Below, piece after piece: positions 914 through 57,485 of a stretch of 64,000 nucleotides of DNA. The position numbers were made by a program, and so were the translations under genes. This DNA comes from Pseudomonas sp. HMWF032 (lineage in GTDB: Bacteria; Pseudomonadota; Gammaproteobacteria; Pseudomonadales; Pseudomonadaceae), in the NCBI RefSeq assembly GCF_003060885.1, contig NZ_QAIG01000013.1, positions 298,712-362,711 on the forward strand, written 5' to 3'. The notes beneath the pieces were generated by a model that saw only the letters and a program-made list of their open reading frames with translations, was not told where the DNA came from and ran no database searches. The first letter of the stretch is position 1. Each line of letters starts with the position of its first letter.

Positions 914-1405
914 ATGCCGAGCAAAAGTCTAAACTCACGTATACCAGCTTATAAGTCCGCATTCTCCAGTGGGGAACTCCAAAAGACCTACCAAGACCTG
1001 GTTGGCATTGTCCAAAATCTAAGAACTGAATTCTCTAAGAAATACAAAAGCGAATTCTTGATTGCCAATGTGTTGCATGGTTACATAGATTTCACGTACT
1101 TTTACTTGCAAAACAGCTATCTCAAGAAGAAAAAGCTAAAGCTTGCGATTGTCTTCAACCACAAAAATGCAAATTTTGAACTGTGGCTCCTTGGGCAAAC
1201 AAAGGATGTACAGATTCTCTATTGGAGAAAACTAAGAGAAGTGAAGTGGGTCAATAAGGAGGTAATGCCAGAGTATTCAATTTTCGAAGCCCCACTACTT
1301 TTGGCCCCAGACTTTGATAGTTCAACAAAGCTATCGGAGTCCATTCACACTCAATTTGAATCCCTGTCGCAGGAGATATTCAACACGCTGGAGGCATACG
1401 AATAA
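914..1405 (+). CDS. Cassette 3: DUF7000-like hypothetical protein
   Basis: A 163-residue product. I chose the ATG at 914 over the TTG at 911 because GGGG at 902-905 sits eight bases upstream. The protein is rich in Lys and aromatic residues. It contains SELQ/KTYQDLVGIVQNLRTEF, then a core DFTYFYLQNSYLKKKKLKLAIVF and FELWLLGQTKDVQILYW. From memory this layout matches the DUF7000 family of small cytoplasmic proteins of unknown function, but I could not check it. Its composition (AT-rich, many AAA/AAG codons) differs clearly from the core genes to the right. No signal peptide or membrane segment is visible. Confidence 0.72.
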   Translation: MPSKSLNSRIPAYKSAFSSGELQKTYQDLVGIVQNLRTEFSKKYKSEFLIANVLHGYIDFTYFYLQNSYLKKKKLKLAIVFNHKNANFELWLLGQTKDVQILYWRKLREVKWVNKEVMPEYSIFEAPLLLAPDFDSSTKLSESIHTQFESLSQEIFNTLEAYE

Positions 1406-1409
1406 TGCC

Positions 1410-1460
1410 ACATAACACTGCAGTCGAGAGGGACGGCCGCCCCTCACTTCCACGTTAGAG
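1410..1460 (+). repeat. attC site 3 (51 bases, short atypical type)
   Basis: ACATAAC at 1410-1416 and GTTAGAG at 1454-1460, with the interior GAGAGGGACGGCCGCCCCTC as a short stem. It lacks the TTCGCTTCGCTCAC interior of sites 1, 2, 4 and 6, so this cassette came from a different cassette pool. Confidence 0.85.
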
Positions 1461-1471
1461 CTCATTCACTC

Positions 1472-2020
1472 ATGCACATACCAGCCCTCATCATCATTGA
1501 TATGCAGCGTGGAATGCTCGAACCGTCAGCAGGCGCTCGCAACAACCCGCATGCAGAGCAAGCAATCGCAATTACGCTGAAAGCATGGAGAGAAGCGAAG
1601 GCACCGATTGTTCATGTGCGTCACATCTCAAGAACACCTGGCTCTCCGTTCTGGCCTGGGCAGCCTGGTGTTGAGTTCCAAGAAGAACTACAGCCATTAA
1701 ACACCGAGCATGTAGTTGAAAAGAACGTCCCGGACGCATTCATTAACTCCGGGCTTGAGCGCTGGCTTCGGATCAGAGGCATCGAAACCATTGCAATCGT
1801 AGGTGTGAGCACCAACAATGCTGTCGAAGCAACAGCGCGTACAGCAGGTAATCTTGGTTTTCAAACTTATGTGGCAGCGGATGCAACGTTTGCATTCGCA
1901 AAGCCCGACTACAACAGAGTTCTACGTAGCGCTGAAGAGGTACATGCTATGGCATTAGCGAATCTTCATGGTGAGTACGCAACAGTCGTCACAACCACCG
2001 AGTTACGAAAGGCCCTCTAA
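1472..2020 (+). CDS. Cassette 4: isochorismatase-fold hydrolase lacking the catalytic Cys
   Basis: A 182-residue member of the isochorismatase/cysteine hydrolase family (nicotinamidase-like alpha/beta fold). The start is the ATG at 1472. The Asp of IIIDMQ (residue 10) and the Lys of VVEKNVPDAF (residue 84) fill two positions of the usual Asp-Lys-Cys triad. The third position, normally Cys in a G-x-x-T-x-x-C-V motif, is Ala117 here (GVSTNNAVEATA). Some family members, including true isochorismatases of the PhzD type, work without this Cys, so the protein need not be dead, but amidase or nicotinamidase chemistry is unlikely. The stop codon lies inside the left arm of its attC. Substrate unknown. 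Confidence 0.88.
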   Translation: MHIPALIIIDMQRGMLEPSAGARNNPHAEQAIAITLKAWREAKAPIVHVRHISRTPGSPFWPGQPGVEFQEELQPLNTEHVVEKNVPDAFINSGLERWLRIRGIETIAIVGVSTNNAVEATARTAGNLGFQTYVAADATFAFAKPDYNRVLRSAEEVHAMALANLHGEYATVVTTTELRKAL

Positions 2021-2091
2021 CAACTGGTTCAAACCGTTCGCTTCGCTCACTCGGGGTCGGTTAAAACCGTCCCCTTAACTTAACGTTAGTC
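2015..2091 (+). repeat. attC site 4 (Pseudomonas type)
   Basis: CTCTAAC at 2015-2021 pairs with the GTTAGAG at 1454-1460 that begins this cassette. The right core is GTTAGTC at 2085-2091. The interior carries TTCGCTTCGCTCAC. Confidence 0.9.
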
Positions 2092-2117
2092 ATCTTCACC
2101 CTATAGGAAATTGTCAG

Positions 2118-2657
2118 ATGAAATTGTTAGCATTTGCAGCCAGTAACAGTAAACAGTCTATAAACAAGCAGTTGGTAACATATGCCGCAAGCCTCCTTGA
2201 AGGTGCTGATGTCGATATCTTAGATTTGAACGACTATGAACTGCCATTGTTCAGTATTGATAAGGAAAAAGAGCTCGGCAATCCTGATTTGGCAAAGGCA
2301 TTTGTGTCAAAAATTGCAGCTTCTGATGTGATCATAATTTCTTTTGCTGAACACAATGGCGCCTACAGTGCAGCCTACAAGAACCTGTTTGATTGGTGCT
2401 CGAGAATTAATACAAAAGTATTTCAAGACAAGCCTCTTGTTTTGCTTTCCACGTCACCAGGCGCACGCGGAGGCGCCAGCGTTCTGGCCTTAGCAACGAC
2501 CTCTGCTCCTCATTTTGCCGGCCGTGTCCAAGCCAGTCTTTCTATTCCAAGCTTTAACGAGAACTTTGATGTCGAGCGCGGCATGCTTATTAACGAAGCG
2601 TTGAACGACCGATTGATTGAGGCTGTTAGGGGGTTGAAGAATTTGCCAAACGGCTAA
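2118..2657 (+). CDS. Cassette 5: NADPH-dependent FMN reductase family protein
   Basis: A 179-residue flavodoxin-like protein of the NADPH-dependent FMN reductase (FMN_red) family. Residues 3-20 form the first beta strand and phosphate-binding loop (LLAFAASNSKQSINKQL). The segment AEHNGAYSAAYKNLFDW near 78-94 matches the conserved [PA]-E-[YH]-N-G motif followed by a K-N-x-x-D-W helix. LLSTSPGARGG near 109-119 is the third flavin-contacting loop. Such enzymes reduce FMN, quinones, azo dyes or metals using NAD(P)H in the cytoplasm; the actual substrate is unknown. TAGGAAA at 2104-2110 is a plausible ribosome binding site for the ATG at 2118. The stop overlaps its attC. Confidence 0.88.
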   Translation: MKLLAFAASNSKQSINKQLVTYAASLLEGADVDILDLNDYELPLFSIDKEKELGNPDLAKAFVSKIAASDVIIISFAEHNGAYSAAYKNLFDWCSRINTKVFQDKPLVLLSTSPGARGGASVLALATTSAPHFAGRVQASLSIPSFNENFDVERGMLINEALNDRLIEAVRGLKNLPNG

Positions 2658-2706
2658 CAACATCCAGCGGCGGCGCTCTGCGTCGCCGCTGATGTTGACG
2701 GTAAGC
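2652..2706 (+). repeat. attC site 5 (short, degenerate right core)
   Basis: GGCTAAC at 2652-2658 followed by the arms AACATC and GATGTT around a GCGGCGGCG...CGTCGCCGC stem. The right simple site reads GTAAGC rather than GTTAGCC, so the site may be recombination-poor. The interior differs from both the Pseudomonas-type sites and site 3. Confidence 0.72.
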
Positions 2707-2722
2707 TTACCAGGAGGAAACC

Positions 2723-3031
2723 ATGGACGACGCAGCTTACGAACAACTAGAAGCTCTTTGTGCGGACTTCCAAAGGCAGTGGATCGTCTTACTACGGGAC
2801 AGGCTTAAAAAGCACAACATACCTAACGACATCGCCAAATCAATCTGTGGTGAATTCAGCTTCGACTTATCAATGCTTTTCGATCAAGGCGAGATCGATT
2901 ATCAAGGCGATAGTTTCAGGCCATTTGTCGCTTTCACAGACGATGCTGAACAGCCAGCACTTATTGTTGAACCTAACGGCCCTCAATTCCATGAATATGC
3001 GTTGGGTACGACTGACGAGGCCTATGAGTAG
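2723..3031 (+). CDS. Cassette 6: hypothetical protein
   Basis: A 102-residue acidic protein starting at the ATG at 2723, preceded by a strong AGGAGG at 2711-2716. This is the clearest ribosome binding site in the array. The sequence has an amphipathic N-terminal half (EQLEALCADFQRQWIVLLRDRLKKHNI) and an Asp/Glu-rich C-terminus. No signal peptide, membrane segment or known domain was recognised. It lies 17 bases after attC 5 and its attC begins seven bases after the stop. Confidence 0.72.
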   Translation: MDDAAYEQLEALCADFQRQWIVLLRDRLKKHNIPNDIAKSICGEFSFDLSMLFDQGEIDYQGDSFRPFVAFTDDAEQPALIVEPNGPQFHEYALGTTDEAYE

Positions 3032-3037
3032 CAAACG

Positions 3038-3113
3038 GCCTAACCAGTGGTGCAAAGCATTCACTTCGCTCGCTGGGACACGCTCCAGCCGGCCCCTTAA
3101 CCAAACGTTAGGC
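3038..3113 (+). repeat. attC site 6 (76 bases, Pseudomonas type)
   Basis: GCCTAAC at 3038-3044 and GTTAGGC at 3107-3113, with a diverged interior (CACTTCGCTCGCTGGGAC) and the shared right arm CCCCTTAACCAAACG. Confidence 0.92.
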
Positions 3114-3174
3114 CATATGCAAAGAATGCTCTATCTCCGCATCATTTCATTTTTTAATACATCAGGTGATAACC

Positions 3175-3570
3175 ATGCTGAAAGGAAGTTGCTGCTGCGG
3201 AACCATCAGGTTCACGCTATCTAGCCCCCCAACAATGATGGGCACTTGTTACTGCACGCGCTGCCGCAAGGTCGGCGCCACCACATTTGTATTCGTCAAG
3301 CGCGATTCTTTTGAATTACTCTCAGGCGCAGACGCCATATCCACATACAAGCCAGAAGCACCCTACCAATACAACCGTTGCTTTTGCTCCCATTGCGGCA
3401 CAGCGCTTGGTGAAATCACATCCCTTGAAGAGTCTTTTCCGGTTGCGGCCAACTGCTTCGATGACGAGCTTAAGATCACGAATATGTTTCATGAGTTCGT
3501 AAAAGAAAAGCCGAGCTGGTATGGCATCTGTGATGAGGCGAAACAATTCTTAGAGCATCCTCACCCGTAG
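3175..3570 (+). CDS. Cassette 7: GFA/CENP-V-fold zinc protein
   Basis: A 131-residue member of the GFA (glutathione-dependent formaldehyde-activating enzyme-like, CENP-V) family. I chose the ATG at 3175 because AGGTGA at 3164-3169 is correctly spaced. The zinc ligand pattern is complete: GSCCCG (Cys6-8), CYCTRC (Cys25, 27 and 30) and CFCSHCGT (Cys69, 71 and 74). Most family members have no proven activity; formaldehyde-glutathione adduct formation is known for only a few, so no specific role is claimed. It is the last cassette gene of the array, and its attC is degenerate. Confidence 0.88.
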   Translation: MLKGSCCCGTIRFTLSSPPTMMGTCYCTRCRKVGATTFVFVKRDSFELLSGADAISTYKPEAPYQYNRCFCSHCGTALGEITSLEESFPVAANCFDDELKITNMFHEFVKEKPSWYGICDEAKQFLEHPHP

Positions 3571-3627
3571 TGCCATGCAGCAAAACTGAGAACGGTGAAT
3601 TCTGCTATCGGCGCAAACCGTGGCGCG

Positions 3628-3690
3628 GCCTAACTGCATTAAAAACCGCCCACGTCGCTCACTGACACGGACCAAAGCCCCACGTTCAAC
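3628..3690 (+). repeat. attC site 7 (degenerate, end of array)
   Basis: GCCTAAC at 3628-3634 and an imperfect right core GTTCAAC at 3684-3690. The interior keeps CGTCGCTCACTGACACGGACCAAAGCCCC, a decayed copy of the Pseudomonas-type attC. No further attC follows. Confidence 0.7.
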
Positions 3691-45712: not shown

Positions 45713-47557
45713 TCAAAACAACGCCCACTGGTTGCTGTCCTCTACCGTCACCGGTGCTGGCGTAGGTCTGTCAGGCGCGGTGGCCAGCCGCTCGGCCAAG
45801 CCCGCCGCGCGCTCGGCACGGGTGGCCACGGCTTCGCCCAAGCGGGCGGCTAAGGCCCAGATTTCCACCTTGTGTTTGGCGCGGGTGATGCCGGTGTAGA
45901 ACAGGCTGCGGCTGAGCAAGGGGCTGGGCAGTTCGGGCAGCACCAGCAGCACGTTGGCAAATTCCGAGCCCTGGCTTTTGTGCACGGTCATGGCGAAGGC
46001 GCTGTCGTGGCTCGGCAGGCGTGCCGGGGCGAAGGGGCGGTAACCGTCCTCGCCTTCAAAAAAGACGCGCAGGCCGTATTCAGTGTGCAGGCAGAGGCCG
46101 ATATCACCGTTGAACAGGCCGAGGGCGTAGTCGTTCTGCCGCACCATGATCGGCCGGCCGACATACCAGCGCTCGCGCGCGGAAACCTGGCTGCGGCGTT
46201 TGATCCGTGCCTCCAGCGCTTCGTTGATCCCGGCCACGCCCCAGGCCCCCTCACGTTGAGCGCAGAGCGCGCGAAAGGCATTGAACGCGGTAAAGGCGGC
46301 GGCAGGGTCGGCGCTTCTGGCGGCGCTGATATAGGGCGCGTAGCCCTGATCCAGACGTTCCAGCAACTCATTGGGCGTTGGCGTGGCCATCCAGGTCAGG
46401 TCGCTGCGGCTTTCCTTGAGCAGGTTCAGCGTGCCGCTGACATCGCCGCCATTAATGCGCCGCGCCAGTTCGCCGATGCCGCTGTCACCGGCAAAGCGGT
46501 GGCTGTGGGTGAGCAGCACCACCGCATCGCCCAGTTGTGAGGTCGGCTGGCTGATCGGCACCTGCTGGCCGGTGATGCGTTGCAGTTCGCCCGCCGCCTG
46601 AGCATCAAAACCACGGCCCTCGCAGAGCTCGGCAAACACCGCGCCGGCTTCCACGGCGCACAGTTGGTCTTTATCGCCAAGCAGGATCAATCGTGCAGTG
46701 GGCGGCAGCGCATCGAGCAGTTTGGCCATCAGCGCCAGATCGACCATCGACGCTTCGTCCACCACCAGCACGTCCAGCGCCAGCGGATTGGCCGCGTGAT
46801 GCCGCACCTGCGGGCTGTCGCCCCGGCTGCCGAGCAGGCGATGCAGGGTGCGCGCCTCATCGGGCAGCGCGGCTTTGATCGCCTCGCTGACCGGCAACTC
46901 GGCTTTGGCATTGCGAATGGCTTCGGCCATGCGTGCAGCGGCTTTGCCGGTAGGCGCGGCCAGGCCGATGGCCAGCGGAGCGCCGCCCGGATGTTCGCAA
47001 CCGGGCTGTTCAAGCAGCGCCGCCAGCAAACGCACCACGGTGGTGGTTTTGCCGGTGCCGGGGCCGCCGGAGATCACCGCCAGCTTGCGTCGCACCGCTT
47101 GCGCGGCGGCCAGGCGCTGCCAGTCGGGCTGTTGCTGATTAAAGGCAAACAACCGGGTCAGGCTTTCACTGAGCTGGGCCTCATCCACTTCGGGCAGATC
47201 GGCGGCGCGTTGCAGCAACTGCTTGGCCAACTGGCGCTCATAAGCCTGATAACGCGCGAGATAAAGGCGGCCGTGCTCAAGGATCAGCGGTGTGAACGCC
47301 CCCTCGCCGCCTACCAACGCGGATGCCTGCAACTGCGCCTGCCAGTCCGCCAGTTTCGGCAGATTGAAGGCATGTTCCGGCCAGGGCCGCTGCCCGGCTG
47401 TGCGCGCCAACGGCAGGCACACATCGCCTTTGTCCAAGGCCATGCACAGCAGCGCCGCTGACGCCAAGACCACCGGCGACGCCTGCGGATCAAGGCGCTG
47501 CAAGCTGGCGACCAGCGCGCGTTCCAGCGGGCCGAGGGGCAGATCAGCAAGCGTCAT
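45713..47557 (-). CDS. recD: Exodeoxyribonuclease V alpha subunit RecD
   Basis: A 614-residue 5'-3' helicase subunit of RecBCD. Motifs are SGGPGTGKTTTVVRLL (Walker A, about 161-176), VVDEASMVDL (motif II), LLGDKDQL, and MTVHKSQGSEF with SRSLFYTGITRAKHKV near the C-terminus. The ATG at 47557 is preceded by GGGAG; codons further up lie in a repeat and are not homologous. The gap to recB (112 bases) contains a GTAGGGTGGAT repeat. Gene order recC-recB-recD matches pseudomonads. Confidence 0.94.
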   Translation of the reverse strand: MTLADLPLGPLERALVASLQRLDPQASPVVLASAALLCMALDKGDVCLPLARTAGQRPWPEHAFNLPKLADWQAQLQASALVGGEGAFTPLILEHGRLYLARYQAYERQLAKQLLQRAADLPEVDEAQLSESLTRLFAFNQQQPDWQRLAAAQAVRRKLAVISGGPGTGKTTTVVRLLAALLEQPGCEHPGGAPLAIGLAAPTGKAAARMAEAIRNAKAELPVSEAIKAALPDEARTLHRLLGSRGDSPQVRHHAANPLALDVLVVDEASMVDLALMAKLLDALPPTARLILLGDKDQLCAVEAGAVFAELCEGRGFDAQAAGELQRITGQQVPISQPTSQLGDAVVLLTHSHRFAGDSGIGELARRINGGDVSGTLNLLKESRSDLTWMATPTPNELLERLDQGYAPYISAARSADPAAAFTAFNAFRALCAQREGAWGVAGINEALEARIKRRSQVSARERWYVGRPIMVRQNDYALGLFNGDIGLCLHTEYGLRVFFEGEDGYRPFAPARLPSHDSAFAMTVHKSQGSEFANVLLVLPELPSPLLSRSLFYTGITRAKHKVEIWALAARLGEAVATRAERAAGLAERLATAPDRPTPAPVTVEDSNQWALF

Positions 47558-47568
47558 AGTCCACTCCC

Positions 47569-47637
47569 GTAGGGTGGATGACGCTTCATCCATCCACCGT
47601 TCGCCGTGGTGGATGAAAACAGCGTCATCCACCCTAC
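47569..47637. repeat. GTAGGGTGGAT-type inverted repeat inside the recBD operon
   Basis: GTAGGGTGGATGACGCTTCATCC (left) and its near-inverse ending ATCCACCCTAC (right) form a 69-base palindrome with inner GGTGGATG/CATCCACC stem. It separates recB from recD, only 11 bases upstream of the recD start, so it may influence recD translation. Confidence 0.75.
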
Positions 47638-47669: not shown

Positions 47670-50600
47670 TCAGCGCCCCTCCGCAAACAAGGTATCCAGC
47701 GCATCCAACAGCCCATCGCTGGGCCGCGAGAAATACACTCCAGCGCTCGGCATGCCGCGCAGAAACAGGTAATACGCGCCGCCCAGCTGCTCATTCTGGA
47801 AGCCATCCAGACGCTGCCGCAGGAAGCGCCGCAGCGCCACCAGGTAGATCAGGTATTGCAGGTAGTAATGCTCGGCGGCCAGGGCGTGCAGCAGGCGTTC
47901 GCCGCCGTAGTAGCTGGCGTCCGGGCCGAGCCAGTTGGACTTGTAGTCGGCGATGTACCAGCGGCCGTTGTGCTCGAAGGTCAGGTCGATAAAACCCTTG
48001 AGAAAGCCCTTGAGGCTGTCGAATTCCAGCCGCGCCGCCGCCTCGCGCATCGGTGCCGCCAGGCCATGCGCCGGGTCGCAGAGAATCGCGCGCAGGCGTT
48101 GCACATCCAGCCCCGCCAGGGGAAAGGTAAAGCCCAGTTCGGGCAAGCGTCGGGTCGGATTCAGACCAGCGAGGGTCAGACCCTGGCCGTCCAGATCGGC
48201 GTCGATCACTTGTTGCAGATGGTCAAGCGCCACGGCCTGCCAGTCGTTGCTGATGCCGTGACCGCTCAGCCCCGGTTCGATCAGCTCAGCCAGCGCGCCT
48301 TTGCTGCGCGCCCAATCTTCGAGGATGGCGTGCAGACAGGTACCGGCCCGCGCACCACGGGGAAAGGCGAAGAAGCCCGTGCCCGGCTCGCTGGCATCCG
48401 GCAGCACCAGGCCATCGCGGTCCGGGGCTTCCATATGCATACCCGCCGCCAACCCCGAAAAGCTGCCGATGCGCCAGGCGCTGTGCAGGCTGCGCTGCAA
48501 GGTGGCGAGTTGCTGCGGGGCCGGGGCGCGTTGCTCACCGGCGGCGCTGGCCTCGCTGTCACGCAACGGTTGAATGGCCATCTGGCCTTGGCTGCTGGCG
48601 ATCAGCTGTTCGACTTCCGCACGCAAACCCTGCGGACTGAGGGTTTGCAGGTGGCCGGCCAGTTCGGCGAGGGCATCCTCACCCGATAACCCACGGCCGT
48701 GCAGCAGCCAGGCCAGGGCGCTGCTGTGCAGGCCGCTGTCGCCGAGGCTGCCGTCCTTTTTCGGCTTGCAGTCCACCGGCCCCCAGTGCAGCCACAGGCG
48801 ATCGCGCGCGCGGGTCAGGGCGACGTAGGTCAGGCGCAGTTTTTCGGCAAAACGCTCATGACGGGCGCGCTCGCGGTGTGTGTCGAGCTGTTCGCTGCCG
48901 AGGTCCAGCAGCGGCGTGCCGTCGTCGGCGTGGCAGCTGATGTCTTCATGCTGGCGCAGCAGCGCGCCGTCCCACAGGTAGGGGCAGAACACCAGCGGGT
49001 ATTCCAGGCCTTTGGAGGTGTGGATGGTGACGATTTGCACGCGCTCGGCATCGCTTTCCAAACGCAGCAGGGCGTCTTCGCCATGGGCCTCGGTGCTGCG
49101 CTGGGCGTTGAACCAGGCGAGCAATTGCTCCAGGCCGGGACGTTGCAGGCTTTCGCTTTGCAGCAGCTCGGCCAGGTGCAGCAGGTTGGTCAGACGGCGC
49201 TCGCCATCGACCAGCGCCAGCAACCGCTGGGCCACTTGCTGCTCATCCAGCCAGGCGCGGAAAGCGCGCATAAAGCCTTGTTGCTGCCAGAGTTGGTGAT
49301 AGCGCTCGGCGGCTTCGCGCTCACGGTCCCAGGCTTGGGCATCCTCGCTGCAGGCGGCCAGATCAGCGGCGCTGCGGCCCAGCAAACGGCTGGCCAGGGC
49401 ATAACGCAATGCGCCCTCGCGGCCCGGTTCGGCGTAGGCGGCGAGCACGGCGGACAGCTCATCGGCCTCTTCGCTGTGCCAGACGTTCTCCTTGCCTCGG
49501 CGCACGCTGGGCACGCCACGGGCGGCCAGTTCGGCGGCCACTTCGCCGGCTTGACGGTGACTGGCGACCAGCACGGCGATATCACCGCCCTTTAACGGCG
49601 TATGGATACCCGACTGTTCGAAATAGGCCTCCCCCCGGCTGCTGGCGCTGAGCACCGCCGCAATGCGCCGCGCCGTATCCCGCGCCACCAATGCCCCCGC
49701 TTCACCCTTGCCCAGGTAGTCGTTATCCAGCCAGACCAACGCCAGCGGCGCGTCGGTTTCATCCTCAATACGCGGCAATACCAGTCGCGCCCGCGCCTTG
49801 CTGCTGGCCCCGACCTGCTGGTAAGCCAAGCCCTTCTCGGCAAAGGGCATGGGCCGGTCGAACAGCTGATTCAGCGCGGCGATCAGCGCGGGCGTGGAGC
49901 GGTGGTTGGTGGCCAGGCTGTATTGCCGCGCGGCTTCGCTGCGGGCTTTTAAATACGTGGCTAAGTCGGCACCGCGAAACGCGTAGATGGCCTGTTTGGG
50001 GTCGCCGACAAAACACAGGTCGCCCGCCTGGCTACTGCGCGCCTCGCTGACTGCGTCAGTTCCTCGCTCAGGGCTCGCCGTACAGCCAGTACTGTCTCGC
50101 CCTTCGCTCGGAGCCTTCCTTGTCAGCAAGTCGCTCGCTACGCCAGGGTTTGAATAGATACGGTGAAACACCCGGTACTGCACCGGGTCGGTGTCCTGAA
50201 ACTCATCGATCAGCGCCACCGGATACTGCGTGCGCAGGGTGCTGGCCAGGTGCTCGCCGCCCTCACTCTGCAAGGCTTGCTGCAGTTTGTTGAGCAGGTC
50301 ATCGAAGGCCAGCAGGCGTTGCGCCGCCTTGCGCGCGGGCAATTGTTCGTTGAGCTGATGAATCAAGCGCACCTGCAGGTCGATCAGGCGTTGCTCAGCC
50401 TCGGGTTGTGCGGCATCCAGCGCATCGCACAGCTCCTGCAAGGCAGCGGCCAGCGGATTGGCGGGGGCTTCGCAGCCCTTCTTGCTGGCCTTGTTCAGCC
50501 CTTCGCGGGCCAGGCGGCGATGCGCTTCGGTCTTGCTGAACAGCGCAGCGGCGTCGCTGAAATAACCGTCCAACTCAGCCTGCCAGACGCCCAGTTTGGC

Positions 50601-51335
50601 CGGGTTGCACATATTGCTCTTGAAGCCGTCAAAGGCCTTGAGCTGCGCCAGCCAGCCGGCGCTTTCGCCCTGCCAAAGGCGCTGCGCCTGCTGCCAGGCA
50701 GCGCGCAGGGCGCTCATCTCGCTGCGCGTGCCCGGTTGTGGTTCGATGCGCAGGTAGGGTTTGCCCAGGTGATTGCGCAAACGCTGACGCAGGCTTTGCG
50801 GAGTGATCTTTTGCTGCACCAGAAATGCCGCCCATTCCGGCTCGGCGCTGGCCAGCTCATGCCGCCAGAGGTCGGCGAGCAGGGCGTCGATAATCTCGCG
50901 GTCGTCGTGGGTCAGCTCGTTGTCGAAATCGCCACCGGCCTCGAACGCGGCGTCCTGCAACGCCCGCTGGCAGAAGCCGTGGATGGTGAAGATCGCCGCC
51001 TCATCAAAACCGTGCACCGCCAGCAGCAAACGCCGGTGGCTGGCGGCATCCGGGTACTGGGCGTGCAATTCATTGAGCAAGGCGTCATCACCCGGCCCCT
51101 GTTCATACACTGCCAGCAACTCGGCCAGGCGCTTACGAATGCGCTCGCGCAGCTCGGCGGTGGCAGCGGTGGTAAAGGTCACCACCAGAATCTGGCTGAC
51201 GTTGAGCTGTTTCTCCAGCAGCAGGCGCGCGTACAACGCGGTCAGGGTCCAGGTCTTGCCGGTGCCGGCGCTGGCCTCGATCAGCGAGCGACCGGTGAAG
51301 CTGTCGTGCAACAGGTTCAGGCTGGCGCTGCTCAT
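47670..51335 (-). CDS. recB: Exodeoxyribonuclease V beta subunit RecB
   Basis: A 1221-residue helicase-nuclease. Motif I is EASAGTGKTWTL (20-31), motif II LIDEFQDTDPVQY (375-387), motif III VGDPKQAIYAFRGADL (443-458), motif V VQIVTIHTSKGLEYPLV and motif VI RLTYVALTRARDRL. The C-terminal nuclease has ADYKSNWLG with the catalytic Asp-x-Lys. Together with RecC and RecD it processes double-strand ends. Unusual feature: about 40 extra residues (395-436, SNPGVASDLLTRKAPSEG...SSQ) lie between motifs II and III with no frame break. The start overlaps recC by four bases. Confidence 0.95.
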   Translation of the reverse strand: MSSASLNLLHDSFTGRSLIEASAGTGKTWTLTALYARLLLEKQLNVSQILVVTFTTAATAELRERIRKRLAELLAVYEQGPGDDALLNELHAQYPDAASHRRLLLAVHGFDEAAIFTIHGFCQRALQDAAFEAGGDFDNELTHDDREIIDALLADLWRHELASAEPEWAAFLVQQKITPQSLRQRLRNHLGKPYLRIEPQPGTRSEMSALRAAWQQAQRLWQGESAGWLAQLKAFDGFKSNMCNPAKLGVWQAELDGYFSDAAALFSKTEAHRRLAREGLNKASKKGCEAPANPLAAALQELCDALDAAQPEAEQRLIDLQVRLIHQLNEQLPARKAAQRLLAFDDLLNKLQQALQSEGGEHLASTLRTQYPVALIDEFQDTDPVQYRVFHRIYSNPGVASDLLTRKAPSEGRDSTGCTASPERGTDAVSEARSSQAGDLCFVGDPKQAIYAFRGADLATYLKARSEAARQYSLATNHRSTPALIAALNQLFDRPMPFAEKGLAYQQVGASSKARARLVLPRIEDETDAPLALVWLDNDYLGKGEAGALVARDTARRIAAVLSASSRGEAYFEQSGIHTPLKGGDIAVLVASHRQAGEVAAELAARGVPSVRRGKENVWHSEEADELSAVLAAYAEPGREGALRYALASRLLGRSAADLAACSEDAQAWDREREAAERYHQLWQQQGFMRAFRAWLDEQQVAQRLLALVDGERRLTNLLHLAELLQSESLQRPGLEQLLAWFNAQRSTEAHGEDALLRLESDAERVQIVTIHTSKGLEYPLVFCPYLWDGALLRQHEDISCHADDGTPLLDLGSEQLDTHRERARHERFAEKLRLTYVALTRARDRLWLHWGPVDCKPKKDGSLGDSGLHSSALAWLLHGRGLSGEDALAELAGHLQTLSPQGLRAEVEQLIASSQGQMAIQPLRDSEASAAGEQRAPAPQQLATLQRSLHSAWRIGSFSGLAAGMHMEAPDRDGLVLPDASEPGTGFFAFPRGARAGTCLHAILEDWARSKGALAELIEPGLSGHGISNDWQAVALDHLQQVIDADLDGQGLTLAGLNPTRRLPELGFTFPLAGLDVQRLRAILCDPAHGLAAPMREAAARLEFDSLKGFLKGFIDLTFEHNGRWYIADYKSNWLGPDASYYGGERLLHALAAEHYYLQYLIYLVALRRFLRQRLDGFQNEQLGGAYYLFLRGMPSAGVYFSRPSDGLLDALDTLFAEGR
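50022..50155 (-). repeat. In-frame repeat-like insertion in recB
   Basis: The segment encodes about 40 residues (SNPGVASDLLTRKAPSEG, then RDSTGCTASPERGTDAVSEA) that are absent from RecB proteins as I know them. The DNA is rich in GCGAGC/GCTCGC and similar short inverted motifs. I recall this peptide string as an interspersed element read through in various pseudomonad proteins. Edges are approximate. Confidence 0.6.
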
Positions 51336-54300
51336 GCTTCGTCCTCGTCACTGTCTTGCAGGGCGTCCAGCGCCGGGCCGTAGAGTTGTTCGGCCAACAC
51401 TTCAAAGCGCTCATCCAGCGCTTCACGGTCGCGGAAGGCCAAGGCGTTCCAGGGGTCTTGGCCTTCACCGGTCATAAAGTCATTGCCTTGCCACATCACC
51501 CGCGCTTCGCTGCGGGCGGCGTCAATTGGCTCTTTACGCCCGGGGTTGCGCCATTTGTGAGCAAAACCGTGGCTGCATTTGGCGAACAGCGGCAGCGGCT
51601 CGCACAGCGCGCGTTTGTAGGCCTCCAGCCAGGGTAAGAGCAGCTCACGGGCATTGGCCAACGCGCCCAGACGCCATTCGCTTTTCGGTGAGAGCAGGCG
51701 GCTGTCGCGGCTGATCTCGGGGCTGGCCGCGCAGTTGAGCAGCAGATGGCGCAGCCAGAACGGCGCCAGCTCCCAAGCGCCGAGATCACGCAGGCGGTAA
51801 TCAAACAACCCTTCACGGGTCACGCCATCCAGCCAGCCGTGGATGCGCACACCCGCCAGTTCGATATCGACCAACAGCGGTTGCGGCGCGTCCTCCGGGC
51901 GCTCGTCAAACAGGGTCGGCGCAAAGGCGCGAATCGGCCCGCGAATTTGCCCCCAGTGCGCCTGGCCCAACTCGCCCACTGGCAGCCAGCCGGAAGCCGC
52001 CGCCACGGCGCGCTCCTGGCGTTCACTCCAACCGTTCTCGATAGACTGCAACGCCAGCTGGCGCAGGCCGTGCTGGCGGGTCCACTCGACACTGAACGGC
52101 TCGTCACCGGCGAGGGCTTCCTCGCTTTGCGCCAAACGCAGGCCGAGGCGTTGTTCCAGCAGGTAGCGCGCCGGGTGTTTGAAGCAGTGAATCAACTGAC
52201 TGGGTTCGATGCTTAACCCGTCCGCATCCGGTGCATCCAGAGCGCTGGCAAAGGGCGCGGGGGCTTGCACCGCCTGACTCAAGCGCTGTGCAGCGTGGAA
52301 CCAGGGCGCGGCAAAGCCGGCATGGCGGTTGCCGGCGAAGTTGCCGGGGGCGAAGGGCTGCAGCGGGTGGTGGTGGGTAATCCTCGTGCTAGCCGGGCCG
52401 TTGCCATCGATCGCCGTCAGATCAACCACATCCAGCAGCTCGCTGACCAGTACCGAAGGCGGCAGCTCGGCGTTGCTGCGTGGATCACGGCCGACATAGC
52501 TCAGGTACAGGCCGCCCCGCGCCGAGAGCAAAATTTCCAGCAGCAGGTAACGGTCATCCAGCCGCCGTGCGCGGTCGCCGCGACGGGGTTTCTGGCTGAT
52601 CAGGTCAAAGCCCGCTGCCGGGGTGCGGCGCGGCAAGGCACCGTCATCCAGACCGAGCAGGCAGACCAGACGAAACGGAAGGCTGCGCATCGGCACCATG
52701 GTGCAGAAGGTCACCGCGCCGGTGAGAAAGCCCGAAGCGGCGCTGCCCTGCTCCAAGGCAGCGGTCAGTTGCTGGCGGATGAGCGCCAGCTCAATCGGCC
52801 GCTCAACCCCCGAGGCGTCGCCCTGTTCTTTGAGCGCTGCGCAGGCCTTGGACAGCAGCAACAGGGTGTCACCGGCTTCGCGCTCATCGAACAACTGATC
52901 AATCAGCCCTTGCAGGGATTCGGCCCATTCGCCCAGGGCGCGCGGCCGTTGCAGGCTCTGCGCCAGCGCGGCCAAGCGCTCGACAAAACCGGCCAAGCGC
53001 CCGAGCAGTTGTGCGCGGCCGCCTTCCAGTGCATCCAGCGGCCAACTGTCGCCCAGCAACGGCGCGGCAAGCCCTGCTAATTGCGGCGGTGCAGCAAAGC
53101 CCAGCAGCAGGCGGTCCAGCCCTTGCCGCCAGGTAAAGGCCGCGTCGGCCGGCAGGCCCAGTTGCTCACGGTGCGTTTCATCGCGGCCCCAGCGTACGCC
53201 CGCGTCGCGCAGCCAGTCGCGCAGCAGCGGTAAATCTTCGGCTTCGATACCTGCGCGGCGGGCAATGGACGGCTGTTCCAGCCAGGCCAGAATTTCTTCG
53301 GCAGCAAAGCGGCTGTCCGGCAGCGCCAACAGGTTGAGGAAGGCTTCGATCAGCGGGATTTCCGCGCGCAGGCTGCGGTCGGCCAGGCTGAACGGCACGC
53401 GCGGCACACCTTCACGCGGGGCAAACACCGCTTCGATATAGGGCGCATACCGCTCGATGTCCGGGGTCAGCACCACCACCTGATCGGGCGTCAGCGCGGG
53501 GTCGGCGGCAAAGCGGGCGAGCAGTTGGTCATGCAGGATTTCCACTTCGCGCAGCGGCGAGTGAGCGACGTGCAGTTCCAGTGAGCGGTCGTCTTCGCGC
53601 AGCACTATGCGTTCAGCCGCCGTTCGAGTGCGCAGGCGCAGGATGTCGTTCTGCAATGCCTGCAACAGGCTGGCGTCTTGCAGGTCTTCATCTTCGGAAT
53701 ACAGGCCGATTTCCTGACTGCCTTCGCTGGAGGCCAGGCTAAACAGGCTGTCGAAAAAATCGCGGCCCTGTTTGCCTAGGCTGGCCAGTAACGGATGGCC
53801 GACATCCAGGTACCAGTCTTCGGGGTTGGCTTCGGGTTGCCGCGCCAGTTCGCGGATGTCGCGAATCTCGCCCCAGGCTTCGCGGCACGGGTTGAGGGCG
53901 AAAACAATCACCTGGGTGTGCCGCGCCAGGCCTTCCAGTACGCGCATGTGGTGCGGTGGCAGCGAACTGATGCCGAACACAAGCACGCGCTCGGGCAGCC
54001 CGGCGATGGGCGTAGCGTCATACAGGCGGGCGAGCAACTCTTCCAGCAAGCGGGCGCGGTGCGGGTGGCCGTCTTTGGTCAGCTCGCGCCAGAGCAGCGC
54101 CTGCCAGCCTTCATCCGGGCCAAGATCAAGCAGCTCGTTGCGTTCCCAGGCAGCCAGCCAGTCGTCGCGATACAGCAGGTATTGGTCGAATACGTCGGCG
54201 ATCTTCACGGCCAGCGACAGCCTTCGGCGTTCATCGCCACCGTCCAGGTAATGCGCCAGACGCGGCGCTTCAGCCAAGTGAGCGGGCTCGCACAGCCAGT

Positions 54301-54586
54301 CATACAAGCGCCAGCTCAGGCTGCTGGGGCTGAACGCCGATTGCTCCGGCAGTTGCCCCAGGCACAGGCGCGAGATGTCCCAGACGAACTTGGCCGGCAG
54401 CTGCACGTCCAGCTGCATGGCAATGCCCTGCTTGCGCGCCAGCTCCAGCGTCAGCCAGCGCCCCATGCCCTGACTCGGCACCACCACCCAGGCCGGCGCA
54501 AACGGCTCGCGCATTGGCGTGGCGAGCAGCGTGGTCGCCAGTTCGCCAAGGGTTTCCAGATCGGGGGCATGGTAGAGGGTGAACAT
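51332..54586 (-). CDS. recC: Exodeoxyribonuclease V gamma subunit RecC
   Basis: A 1084-residue protein typical of RecC length. Helicase-like but inactivated N-terminal half: WVVVPSQGMGRWLTLELARKQGIAMQLDVQLPAKFVWD. RPSTC-type landmarks include HVAHSPLREVEILHDQLL, VVVLTPDIERYAPYIEAVF and MRSLPFRLVCLLGLDDGALPRR. RecC recognises Chi and holds RecB and RecD. The stop overlaps the recB start (ATGA, 51332-51335). No obvious ribosome binding site upstream of the ATG at 54586. First gene of the recCBD unit. Confidence 0.95.
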   Translation of the reverse strand: MFTLYHAPDLETLGELATTLLATPMREPFAPAWVVVPSQGMGRWLTLELARKQGIAMQLDVQLPAKFVWDISRLCLGQLPEQSAFSPSSLSWRLYDWLCEPAHLAEAPRLAHYLDGGDERRRLSLAVKIADVFDQYLLYRDDWLAAWERNELLDLGPDEGWQALLWRELTKDGHPHRARLLEELLARLYDATPIAGLPERVLVFGISSLPPHHMRVLEGLARHTQVIVFALNPCREAWGEIRDIRELARQPEANPEDWYLDVGHPLLASLGKQGRDFFDSLFSLASSEGSQEIGLYSEDEDLQDASLLQALQNDILRLRTRTAAERIVLREDDRSLELHVAHSPLREVEILHDQLLARFAADPALTPDQVVVLTPDIERYAPYIEAVFAPREGVPRVPFSLADRSLRAEIPLIEAFLNLLALPDSRFAAEEILAWLEQPSIARRAGIEAEDLPLLRDWLRDAGVRWGRDETHREQLGLPADAAFTWRQGLDRLLLGFAAPPQLAGLAAPLLGDSWPLDALEGGRAQLLGRLAGFVERLAALAQSLQRPRALGEWAESLQGLIDQLFDEREAGDTLLLLSKACAALKEQGDASGVERPIELALIRQQLTAALEQGSAASGFLTGAVTFCTMVPMRSLPFRLVCLLGLDDGALPRRTPAAGFDLISQKPRRGDRARRLDDRYLLLEILLSARGGLYLSYVGRDPRSNAELPPSVLVSELLDVVDLTAIDGNGPASTRITHHHPLQPFAPGNFAGNRHAGFAAPWFHAAQRLSQAVQAPAPFASALDAPDADGLSIEPSQLIHCFKHPARYLLEQRLGLRLAQSEEALAGDEPFSVEWTRQHGLRQLALQSIENGWSERQERAVAAASGWLPVGELGQAHWGQIRGPIRAFAPTLFDERPEDAPQPLLVDIELAGVRIHGWLDGVTREGLFDYRLRDLGAWELAPFWLRHLLLNCAASPEISRDSRLLSPKSEWRLGALANARELLLPWLEAYKRALCEPLPLFAKCSHGFAHKWRNPGRKEPIDAARSEARVMWQGNDFMTGEGQDPWNALAFRDREALDERFEVLAEQLYGPALDALQDSDEDEA

Positions 54587-55159: not shown

Positions 55160-55256
55160 ATGGCTGCGATTTGTGGGGGCCACTTGGCCGCGCAGCATCC
55201 GGGCGAGGCGCTGACCACTGTGCATGACTGCAAAACAACAACAGCAGGGAGGGAAG

Positions 55257-57485
55257 ATGAACTCAGTAGCCGCACTCGATGAGCTGATCCAGCGCATCGG
55301 CCTCAACCGCCGTGACGTGCATGAGCGGCGCAAACTCCTCGACTGGCAGGATGCCGACGCCACACGCCTGAATAGCGCCGCCGCGCACATGAGCGACACC
55401 CAACAGGCCTTTACCGAGCGCCTTTACGGACACCTGGCCGGCTTTCCCGGCCCCGCCAGCCTGATCAGCAGCGCATCCACCCTGCAACGCCTCAAGCACA
55501 GCCAGCTGGATTACTACCAGCGTCTCTGGCACGGCCCCTACAACGCCGACTACGTGGCCAGCCGCCTGCGCATCGGGCTGATCCACCAGCTGGCCGGCAT
55601 CGAACTGAAATGGTACATGGCCGGTTACCGGCTGTACCTCGATGAAGTCCTCGCCCGCCTATTCGCGGAGCATCCCGACCAGGCTCTCTACGCCAGCCTG
55701 TTGAAAGCGGTGTTCTTCGACATGACGCTGGCCATCGACACCTACAGCGCCGCCCAGCGCAAGGCCCTGGAAGACAGCGAAGCGCGGTTCGCCCGGGCCT
55801 TGCGTGGCGCCAATGACGGCATCTGGGACTGGCACCTGCAGCACGATCGTCTATATGTCTCGGCACGCTGGGCCCGCATGCTCGACCTCGACCGTGATCA
55901 GCTCGGCGAAAGCAGCGCCAGCTGGTTCAGCCGCGTGCACCCGGACGACCTGCCGGCGTTGCGCCAGGCCCTGGAAAGCCACCTCAGTGGCGCCAGCCCG
56001 CTGTTGCACCACGAGTACCGCATCCGTCGCTGCAATGGCGATTACCTCTGGGTGCTGGTGCGTGGCGTGGCGCAGAGCGATGCCAGCGGGCAACAGCGCA
56101 TCGCCGGTTCGCAGAGCGACATCAGCGCACGCAAGGCCGTCGAACAGCAACTGCGCCACGCCGCCCGCCACGACCCGCTGACCGGCCTGGGCAACCGCCT
56201 GCGCCTCGACGAGCTGCTGCTGCAAGCCCTGCAACAGCTGGGCAAAGAGGGCGCGCGTGCAGCCGCACTGCTGTTTATCGACCTCGACCGCTTCAAGCTG
56301 ATCAACGACAGCCTCGGTCACTCCTGCGGCGATCAGGTACTGATCGAGATCAGCCGCCGCCTGAACCACTGCCTGCGCCCCGGTGATCACGTGTGCCGCT
56401 TTGGCGGTGATGAATTTGTGGTGCTGCTCACCGACCTGGCCAGTACCAGCGATGCCGAGCAGGTGGCCCAGCGCATGCTCGACAGCCTGCACCTGCCCCT
56501 GCATGTACAGGAGCAGGTGCTGGTGGTCAGCGCCAGCATCGGCATCACCGCGTTGCAGGCCAGTGATGCCGCCGAGGATGCCCTGCAGGCCGCCGACCTG
56601 GCCCTGTATCAAGCCAAACAAGCCGGCAAGGCTCAGTTCGCCCGGTTCAGCGCTGAACTGCAGGCCAGCGCGCATCATCAGCTGGAACTGGAAAGCGCTC
56701 TCGGCCAGGCCCTGCTGCGTGATGAGTTTGTCCTGCACTACCAGCCAATCTGTCGCAGTGATGGCACGGGCACTCAGGTCGTCGGGGTCGAGGCCCTGCT
56801 GCGCTGGCAACGCGGCGAAAAGCTGGTCGCACCGCTGGAGTTCATCCCCTCACTGGAAGAGTCCGGGGAGATTGTTCCGGTCGGCGACTGGGTGCTGCGC
56901 CAGGCTTGCCGCCAGGTGCGCGCCTGGCAACAGGCCGGGCACACGCAACTGCACTGCGCCGTAAATCTTTCCAGCCGGCAGTTGCGCCAGGACGACTTTG
57001 TCAACCGGCTCACCGCCATCCTGCAGGACACCGGTTTGCCGCCCTCCTGTCTGGTGCTGGAAATCACCGAAAGCCAGTTGCTGGAAGACAGCACCGCAAC
57101 CCTGATCACCCTGCGCGCCCTCGCCAACCTGGGTATTCAACTGGCCCTGGATGATTTCGGCACCGGCTATTCCTCACTGGGTTACCTCAAACGCTTTCCA
57201 CTGCACATCCTCAAGGTCGACAAGAGCTTTATCGGCGGCGTGCCCGAAGATGCCGAACTGCAAGCCATCAGCCGGGCGATCATCGGCCTGGGCCACAGCC
57301 TCGGCCTGGAGGTCATCGCCGAAGGCGTGGAGCACGCCGCCCACCTGGATTTTCTGCGCACGCAGAACTGCCAACTGGCCCAGGGCTTCTGGTTCAGCCG
57401 TCCCTGCAGCGCCCATGAACTGCAACCCCTGTTCAGCCGCATGAGCACCCGCTTGCCCTCAGCCGAAGAGCCGATCGAATCATGA
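55257..57485 (+). CDS. Globin-coupled PAS-GGDEF-EAL protein
   Basis: A 742-residue cyclic-di-GMP enzyme. The N-terminal 165 residues form a globin-coupled sensor (protoglobin) domain with the proximal His110 in [24 protein letters not shown]_3-like domain (about 175-295) follows, then GGDEF (300-465) with intact GGDEF (383-387) and the RxxD inhibitory site five residues before it (RPGD, 374-377). The EAL domain (480-735) has VEALLRW (512-514), DDFGTGYSS and EVIAEGVEH. Both catalytic signatures are intact, so it may make and degrade c-di-GMP. The haem domain suggests oxygen sensing. AGGGAGG supports the ATG at 55257. Overlaps the next gene by four bases. Confidence 0.9.

What the first reader, a model, noticed from the sequence alone, without database searches (positions are those of the whole stretch)
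50022..50155. About 40-residue repeat-like peptide inserted in frame between RecB helicase motifs II and III
After LIDEFQDTDPVQYRVFHRIY the sequence reads through SNPGVASDLLTRKAPSEG and TASPERGTDAVSEA before returning to VGDPKQAIYAFRG. RecB proteins as I know them have only a few residues here. The DNA contains GCGAGC-type short inverted motifs and I recall the peptide as a read-through interspersed element of pseudomonads. If so, a mobile repeat has landed in an essential helicase loop without breaking the frame, comparable to the palindromic elements in Rickettsia proteins. It sits beside the restriction operon, where RecBCD function matters.
Basis: partly seen in the sequence, partly recalled or inferred. 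Interest (0 to 1): 0.72.

Follow-up and report, generated by a model that had tools for sequence, protein, structure and literature searches.

The report
Jumping hairpin DNA inside RecB helicase
A short mobile hairpin-forming DNA repeat has landed inside the gene for a key DNA-repair motor in a pseudomonad without breaking its reading frame, so the protein should carry an extra floppy loop of about 40 residues, and relatives show that the same protein has taken such inserts several times.

Summary
RecB (47670-51335, -) has about 40 extra in-frame residues (DNA 50025-50153) between helicase motifs II and III. Close relatives lack them, including a same-species genome whose RecB is otherwise 98-99% identical. 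The DNA belongs to a family of about 110-bp palindromic, MITE-like repeats: 10 covariance-model matches in this genome (2 strong, 1 medium, 7 weak), matches in 47 of 298 genomes of the genus (own included), and more in other Gammaproteobacteria, where copies have terminal inverted repeats and target duplications. The hairpin shows strong covariation.

Family copies also sit in frame in a second RecB loop of other species and at the N-terminus of an ABC ATPase. The RecB motif II-III loop holds a different palindromic repeat in two distant MAGs. AlphaFold2 gives the insert pLDDT below 50.

Best reading: an interspersed element, translated as a tolerated disordered loop. It works like the protein-coding palindromes of Rickettsia, but no membership is claimed. 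In-frame REPs in repair genes, recB included, were reported in 2013 (PMC3733652), so this is a new member of a known kind.

Not shown: translation, effect on RecBCD, the transposase, and whether the copy jumped here or came with an imported recB tract.

The parts
50025..50153 (-). Inserted segment in recB, net +120 nt (40 codons) against the empty allele of G154
   Evidence: blastn of window recB against G154 aligns nt 1-1182 and 1312-3666; junction sequences
50032..50142 (-). Element core, 111 nt, CGTAGCGAGC...GCGCAGTAG, one long hairpin with conserved internal loops
   Evidence: covariance model match 50022-50151, 124.7 bits; alignment A1 and structure; core length of L052
50143..50147 (-). 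Left outer arm CCTGG, possible remnant of a terminal inverted repeat
   Evidence: pairs with CCAGG at 50027-50031
50027..50031 (-). Right outer arm CCAGG; CCAGG is also present at the empty site of G093
47670..51335 (-). recB, 1221 aa, UvrD-like helicase and PD-(D/E)XK nuclease domains
   Evidence: ORF; Pfam; E. coli RecB 1w36_B, E=1.7e-176
50187..50207 (-). Helicase motif II DEFQDTD, residues 377-383, intact (motif name recalled)
   Evidence: invariant columns of A3
49992..50006 (-). Helicase motif III GDPKQ, residues 444-448, intact (motif name recalled)
   Evidence: invariant columns of A3
51332..54586 (-). recC
   Evidence: ORF; Pfam Exonuc_V_gamma and RecC_C
45713..47632 (-). recD
   Evidence: ORF; Pfam RecD_N, AAA_19, UvrD_C_2

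Best explanation
The segment is one copy of an interspersed, palindromic, MITE-like element: a core of about 110 bp that folds into one long hairpin, framed by inverted repeats. It sits in the recB loop between helicase motifs II and III. The insert is a multiple of three and stop-free in the reading strand, so recB should be translated into a RecB with about 40 extra hydrophilic residues that stay disordered on the surface while the helicase folds around them. The element spreads as DNA, presumably by transposases acting in trans on its ends. Copies in genes survive where an open frame of the element lines up with the gene and the site is a permissive loop. Shown: family membership of the DNA, presence/absence between close RecBs, the open frame, the conserved pairing, and inverted ends with target duplications in homologues. 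Inferred: trans-mobilisation, translation, and near-neutrality for RecB.
For: Absent from the same-species G154 (aa 98-99% identical in the two matched pieces; DNA 95-96%; junction) and from P. anguilliseptica, P. xionganensis and P. peli (best segments 93, 91, 90%). Same DNA family elsewhere: 19 of 199 genomes of the genus, own included, by plain DNA search; 47 of 298, own included, with the model at E<=1e-10; 10 places in the own genome with E<=8.5e-5, at 124.8, 108.9, 65.6 and seven at 35-46 bits. Two more in-frame sites: RecB loop 2 in G014, G013 and Pseudomonas sp. GD04019, and an ABC ATPase N-terminus in G000, G154, G001, G279 and G133, 43 codons longer than MSAFIEV in G013 and G118. Structure: 92.7% of cells paired, 24 of 40 pairs with changes on both sides, 0 of 500 shuffles as high. 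Homologues outside the genus have matched ends; T2 copies have a 4-bp direct duplication in 4 of 5. AlphaFold2: residues 397-435 below pLDDT 50, mean 80.6 over 880 residues. One RecB match to a 300-aa query in the own genome.
Against: The window copy itself has only 5-6 bp of outer arms and no clear target duplication (read by eye). No full-length partner transposon was found: of four genomes searched with one TIR pattern two had matches, and inverted pairs were element-sized or shorter. About 90 bp next to the insert differ between G000 and G154 and match P. peli instead, so the copy may have come in with a recombined recB tract. One aligned copy, L020, forms only 25 of the 40 pairs. The low pLDDT of the insert may partly reflect that few rows of the alignment cover it. 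Seven of the ten own-genome matches are weak. No expression data.
Confidence: 0.87

Rival explanations
1. The copy did not jump into recB in this lineage. It came with a short tract of a foreign recB allele by homologous recombination, and the jump happened in another pseudomonad.
For: recB nt 1341-1431 match P. peli at 90 of 90 positions and G154 at 76 of 90; in no other 120-nt bin of recB is P. peli nearer than G154, with two ties. P. guryensis carries an element at the same site that is 85% identical over 121 bp (L003).
Against: The P. peli genome held has no insert. The tract also agrees with MAG L104 (88 of 90) and P. xionganensis (82 of 90), so it may be a common mosaic unrelated to the insert; in some other bins P. 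anguilliseptica or P. xionganensis is slightly nearer than G154 too.
Confidence: 0.35
2. The insert is selected: it alters RecBCD activity (helicase speed, recombination, degradation of phage or restricted DNA), which is why RecB is hit again and again.
For: Two of the three in-gene sites that I recognised are in RecB. The motif II-III loop holds another palindromic repeat in MAGs L175 and L180. Many REP-bearing genes in PMC3733652 are DNA synthesis and repair genes, recBCD among them (section 15).
Against: Insert presence is scattered and rare on the RecB tree (site 1: 5 changes among 51 rows with remnants), and one lineage keeps only remnants at both sites (L113), which looks like decay. No functional data. 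A permissive loop explains the pattern without selection, and RecB was the gene I looked at most closely.
Confidence: 0.08
3. The hairpin acts at the RNA level inside recB mRNA, as a processed or bypassed intervening sequence or an mRNA stability element.
For: The RNA folds at -60.5 kcal/mol, z = -3.51, pairing is strongly conserved, and half of a related subfamily matches the Xanthomonas sRNA family sX9 (43.6 and 35.4 bits against a gathering score of 44).
Against: The in-gene copies found keep an open frame that joins both sides, which excision or bypass would not require; copies that break a gene would have escaped my search, however. The DNA-parameter fold is unremarkable (z = -0.99).
Confidence: 0.05
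4. A clade-specific protein subdomain of RecB, inherited with the gene.
For: P. guryensis has a similar peptide at the same site.
Against: Missing in the closest RecBs and found as DNA between genes and in another protein.
Confidence: 0.02

Closest known systems
Rickettsia palindromic elements (RPE), Ogata et al. 2000/2002 (not read; seen as described in passages of PMC10969869 and PMC3733652)
   Same: Palindromic repeats of about 150 bp inserted in frame in unrelated protein genes
   Different: Other host; no RPE sequence was compared; here few strong copies per genome and most copies found lie between genes
REP repeats inside repair genes, including recB of Xanthomonas (Di Nocera et al. 2013, PMC3733652; section 15 read in full, passages of other sections)
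   Same: Palindromic repeats read in frame in recBCD and other repair genes; recB of X. campestris and X. oryzae hit at about the same site
   Different: REPs are 20-40 bp units or their dimers; the present element is a single hairpin of about 110 bp with MITE-like ends. I could not check whether the Xanthomonas site is the same loop
ERIC and other enterobacterial repeat units with open frames (Delihas 2007, PMC2759123; abstract and discussion read)
   Same: MITE-like repeats of 103-168 bp fused in frame to genes
   Different: That paper found none inside conserved domains and describes C-terminal fusions in large families; here the insert lies inside the helicase core domain
Rfam RF02228, Xanthomonas sRNA sX9
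   Same: Matches one half of two related B-type copies, on the strand opposite to the one modelled here
   Different: The window copy's locus and ten other A-type loci gave no Rfam hit at E<=1; both sX9 matches are below the gathering score

Membership tests
[quoted passage not shown]
   core 109-112 nt in 75 of 79 copies measured, some loci counted twice; 10 places in the own genome, 3 of them above 60 bits
[quoted passage not shown]
   34 of 36 distinct loci have arms pairing above the 95% level of mismatched arms (the inner 9 positions are part of the model, which favours this); shared ends in high-copy genomes. Window copy: 5-6 bp only
[quoted passage not shown]
   in homologues only: 40 copies fetched, both ends recognised in 20. 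T2: 4-bp direct repeat in 4 of 5. T1: TA on both sides in 9 of 9, but TA is its own reverse complement and so could be part of the inverted ends. T3: 0 of 6 by the script's boundary, 5 of 6 (CTGAG) by eye with the boundary moved. Not seen for the window copy
[quoted passage not shown]
   one TIR pattern, 4 genomes, matches in 2, no transposon-sized pair seen
Rickettsia palindromic element | Sequence relationship to an RPE family | not tested
   no RPE sequence was fetched, so no membership is claimed
Rickettsia palindromic element | In-frame insertion in unrelated protein genes | tested here: met
   RecB two sites, ABC ATPase one site
REP / REPIN | 20-40 bp palindrome with a GTAG end, single or as pairs | tested here: not met
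   one hairpin of about 110 nt; GTAG-like ends lie on the same strand at both ends (GTAG at the left in 12 of 15 rows, AGTAG at the right in 10 of 15)
Rfam families | Match at the curated score | tested here: not met
   11 loci with A-type copies, none at E<=1

The most novel reading that the evidence does not exclude
The loop between motifs II and III of RecB is a general landing place where unrelated palindromic elements are retained because they tune RecBCD, the enzyme that processes broken DNA ends. The 110-nt core would itself be a functional structured module that persists across genera while its terminal repeats are swapped.
Probability: 0.1. Interest if true: 0.82.

Novelty: new member of a known kind. 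Interest (0 to 1): 0.55.

Why it matters
In-frame landing of mobile palindromes in proteins is best known from Rickettsia. Here it occurs in pseudomonads, inside the core domain of RecB, with a same-species genome that lacks the insert. That gives a close natural pair in which the cost or benefit of such an insert can be measured. The repeated use of RecB loops by different repeats makes the open question of why repair genes collect such inserts testable.

Tried and rejected
Rejected: clade-specific RecB domain (copies outside recB; closest RecBs empty). No support for phage or plasmid origin (no match in either collection at E<=1e-5). Rejected as the main mechanism: insertion into the loop of pre-existing terminator hairpins, which I took up because arms looked locus-specific. 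In high-copy genomes the arms proved to be shared ends. At the dipeptidase intergenic site, of 30 loci read (93 genomes matched), 2 hold the element, 1 (L188) a shortened piece, and several others, by eye, hold different hairpins or REP-like repeats. I also considered that arms are copied from the target flank (RecB sites, ATPase); this remains possible but unproven, since palindrome correction after insertion would look the same.

Led nowhere: no Rfam hit for the A type; DNA strings searched in papers gave, in the 15 of 26 papers listed, titles unrelated to this element (listing only); no transposon-sized TIR pair. Not in print as far as searched: in a library lacking most subscription journals, showed no description of this element in RecB; most listed papers were seen as listings only. 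Repeat family R178 of P. fluorescens (PMC2718517, passages) may be related; its sequence was not seen. Passages of PMC6337395 and PMC2828478 were read and are not used as evidence.

Caveats on counts: the 15 rows of A1 include orthologous copies of one intergenic site, so covariation cells are not independent events. In one search some genomes appear twice among 117 rows. In one search one in-gene locus (L054, same place as L254) was labelled as not in a gene, so only whole-set counts are used. In one search I aligned 49 of the 80 loci plus 7 genome rows and the window; rows L138 and L154 are partial and were dropped from the tree, and rows G014 and G013 are cut by the ends of their loci. In one search only 4 of 30 ATPase loci matched my motif (2 with, 2 without the insert); 3 further loci with the insert come. 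In-gene copies were recognised by open frames, so copies that destroyed a gene were not looked for. Model searches over many genomes score few candidates per genome, so their counts are lower bounds. E-values of the model are rough by the tool's own statement.

Full report
What is there. RecB is encoded at 47670-51335 on the minus strand, between recC and recD, with UvrD-like helicase and PD-(D/E)XK nuclease domains and E. coli RecB as the best solved relative. Between DEFQDTD and V/I/L-GDPKQ, 104 of 117 RecB rows have 19-24 residues. The window protein has about 40 more, SNPGVASDLLTRKAPSEGRDSTGCTASPERGTDAVSEARSSQA, in frame and without a stop.

Relatives. G154, labelled same species by the tool, has a RecB 98-99% identical in protein and 95-96% in DNA, and reads HRIYQDSGDLC at the site. 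G014 (92-94% over most of the protein), G093 (86-92%) and the named P. anguilliseptica, P. xionganensis and P. peli also lack the insert at this site. P. guryensis (L114; its contig has the length of G118's, so I take them as one genome) and G028 have related inserts at this site, G028 a longer one. MAG L124 has a diverged one with a REP-like piece inside, by eye. Pseudomonas sp. SJZ079 (L113) has a short remnant. G014, G013 and Pseudomonas sp. GD04019 have a family copy in another RecB loop, again in frame, and L113 has a remnant there too. On a RecB tree of 55 rows, 51 of them of the pseudomonad type, the site-1 insert needs 5 changes with the remnant and L124 counted, 3 strictly; site 2 needs 4 and 3. 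That means repeated gain, loss or transfer.

The DNA family. A plain DNA search finds the segment's relatives in 19 of 199 genomes of the genus, own included. Fifteen copies aligned over 132 columns share a core CGTAGCGAGC...GCGCAGTAG with some variation. RNAalifold gives 40 pairs, 24 of them with changes on both sides. A named-structure count gives 92.7% of cells paired and a covariation score of 0.487 against 0.184 in shuffles, 0 of 500 as high; sliding the partner drops pairing to 28-38%. RecB copies keep the hairpin: 36 and 37 of 40 pairs at site 1, 37 and 37 at site 2. The weakest row, L020 upstream of ybaB, forms only 25. Some rows are orthologues, so this is not 15 independent histories. 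The conserved pairing may reflect selection on the folded nucleic acid or correction of palindromes during replication; I cannot separate these.

Distribution. A covariance model built from the alignment finds 10 places in the own genome with E<=8.5e-5: the RecB copy at 124.8 bits, one intergenic copy at 108.9, the ATPase copy at 65.6, and seven at 35-46. It hits all 12 genomes of a set chosen because they were close or had matched, 47 of 298 genomes of the genus at E<=1e-10, and 25 of 274 genomes of the class at E<=1e-6, own included in both. In the window only this copy scores well. Many weaker hits form a related B type; two of these match Rfam sX9 below its threshold over half their length. 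There is no hit in the plasmid or phage collections.

How it moves. In 36 distinct loci the outer arms pair, with a median score of 11 against a mean of 1.3 for mismatched arms; 34 of 36 exceed the 95% level (the inner nine positions are part of the model). In high-copy genomes outside the genus the arms are shared ends of several types around the same core, two types within one genome, G346. Of 40 such copies fetched, 20 had both ends recognised by my patterns. T2 copies have a 4-bp direct duplication in 4 of 5. T1 copies have TA on both sides in 9 of 9, which fits a TA target but, TA being its own reverse complement, cannot be told from two more bases of inverted repeat. The six T3 copies gave none by the script's boundary, but five of the six read CTGAG on both sides by eye when the boundary is moved. 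This is the anatomy of MITEs. I recall TA and YTAR targets from IS630- and IS5-type elements; no call identified the transposase, and a TIR search in four genomes (matches in two) showed no transposon-sized pair.

In-frame copies. Besides the two RecB sites, a copy sits just after the start codon of an ABC ATPase gene in G000, G154, G001, G279 and G133. G013 and G118 read MSAFIEVK there; the ORFs read in G000, G001, G279 and G133 are 43 codons longer. No ATG, GTG or TTG lies in frame between the first codon and the ATPase core in L254, L261 and L253; L262 has a TTG at codon 13. A GTG at codon 50, five codons into the core, exists in L254 and L261, while L253 and L262 have no start codon in the first 60 codons of the core. 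So at least G001 and G133 should translate element-derived codons, G001 all of them. PMC3733652 warns that N-terminal repeats may be extragenic, so this site is weaker evidence than RecB. All three sites use, by eye, the same strand and frame of the element (VAS at its start), although typical copies have three to four open frames: of 79 copies, +0 is open in 51, -1 in 58, -0 in 54 and -2 in 46. Three sites are too few to conclude from.

Effect on the protein. AlphaFold2 on residues 1-880 with 30 sequences gives mean pLDDT 80.6 and pTM 0.66, with residues 397-435 below 50; the insert lies between a helix (384-393) and a strand (439-444). Few aligned sequences cover the insert, which by itself lowers confidence there. 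Motif II and III residues are intact, and the genome shows one RecB match to a 300-aa query. A tolerated, disordered surface loop is the simplest reading. Translation and function were not tested.

How it came here. recB nt 1341-1431, just beyond the insert, match P. peli at 90 of 90 positions, MAG L104 at 88, P. xionganensis at 82 and G154 at 76. Recombination has therefore been active beside the site, and import of an insert-bearing allele is as live as a jump in place.

A wider pattern. The same RecB loop is long in MAGs L175 and L180, where it encodes a different palindromic repeat, alike in the two: -73.0 kcal/mol against a shuffled mean of -48.1 (sd 4.4), and -30.7 against -20.8 (sd 3.2) (single-letter shuffles). 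In the same test the diverged or shortened inserts of L124, L093 (G028) and L113 and the tandem repeat of L163 folded no better than shuffles by more than about one and a half sd. PMC3733652 (section 15) reported REPs in frame in recBCD and other repair genes, and recB of X. campestris and X. oryzae hit at about the same site. PMC2759123 (discussion) found enterobacterial repeats in frame but none inside conserved domains. The present case adds a MITE-like family inside the helicase core and a same-species empty allele.

Verdict. The kind of event is known; the element family in RecB was not found described in nine library searches (listed under tried and rejected).

Noticed in passing
L182-L211, downstream of the membrane dipeptidase gene (Peptidase_M19): Of 30 loci read, the gap after this gene holds the element in 2 (own, G043), a shortened piece in 1 (L188), and by eye other hairpins or REP-like repeats in several more: a hotspot for different palindromes.
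   Followed up: partly
L175 and L180, RecB motif II-III loop: A different palindromic repeat encodes extra residues at the same RecB loop in two distant MAGs.
   Followed up: partly
L335-L346 (genome G346): One genome carries the same 110-bp core inside two different sets of terminal repeats.
   Followed up: partly
window 47670-51335 and G194: The window RecB fragment is 33-47% identical to that of most congeners searched, and G194 carries both types, which suggests replacement or transfer of recBCD.
   Followed up: no
L057 and L087: B-type copies lie beside the named RNAs proV and gyrA.
   Followed up: no
window 55224-57485: Protoglobin-PAS-GGDEF-EAL protein, a likely oxygen-sensing cyclic-di-GMP enzyme (Pfam; function inferred).
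   Followed up: no
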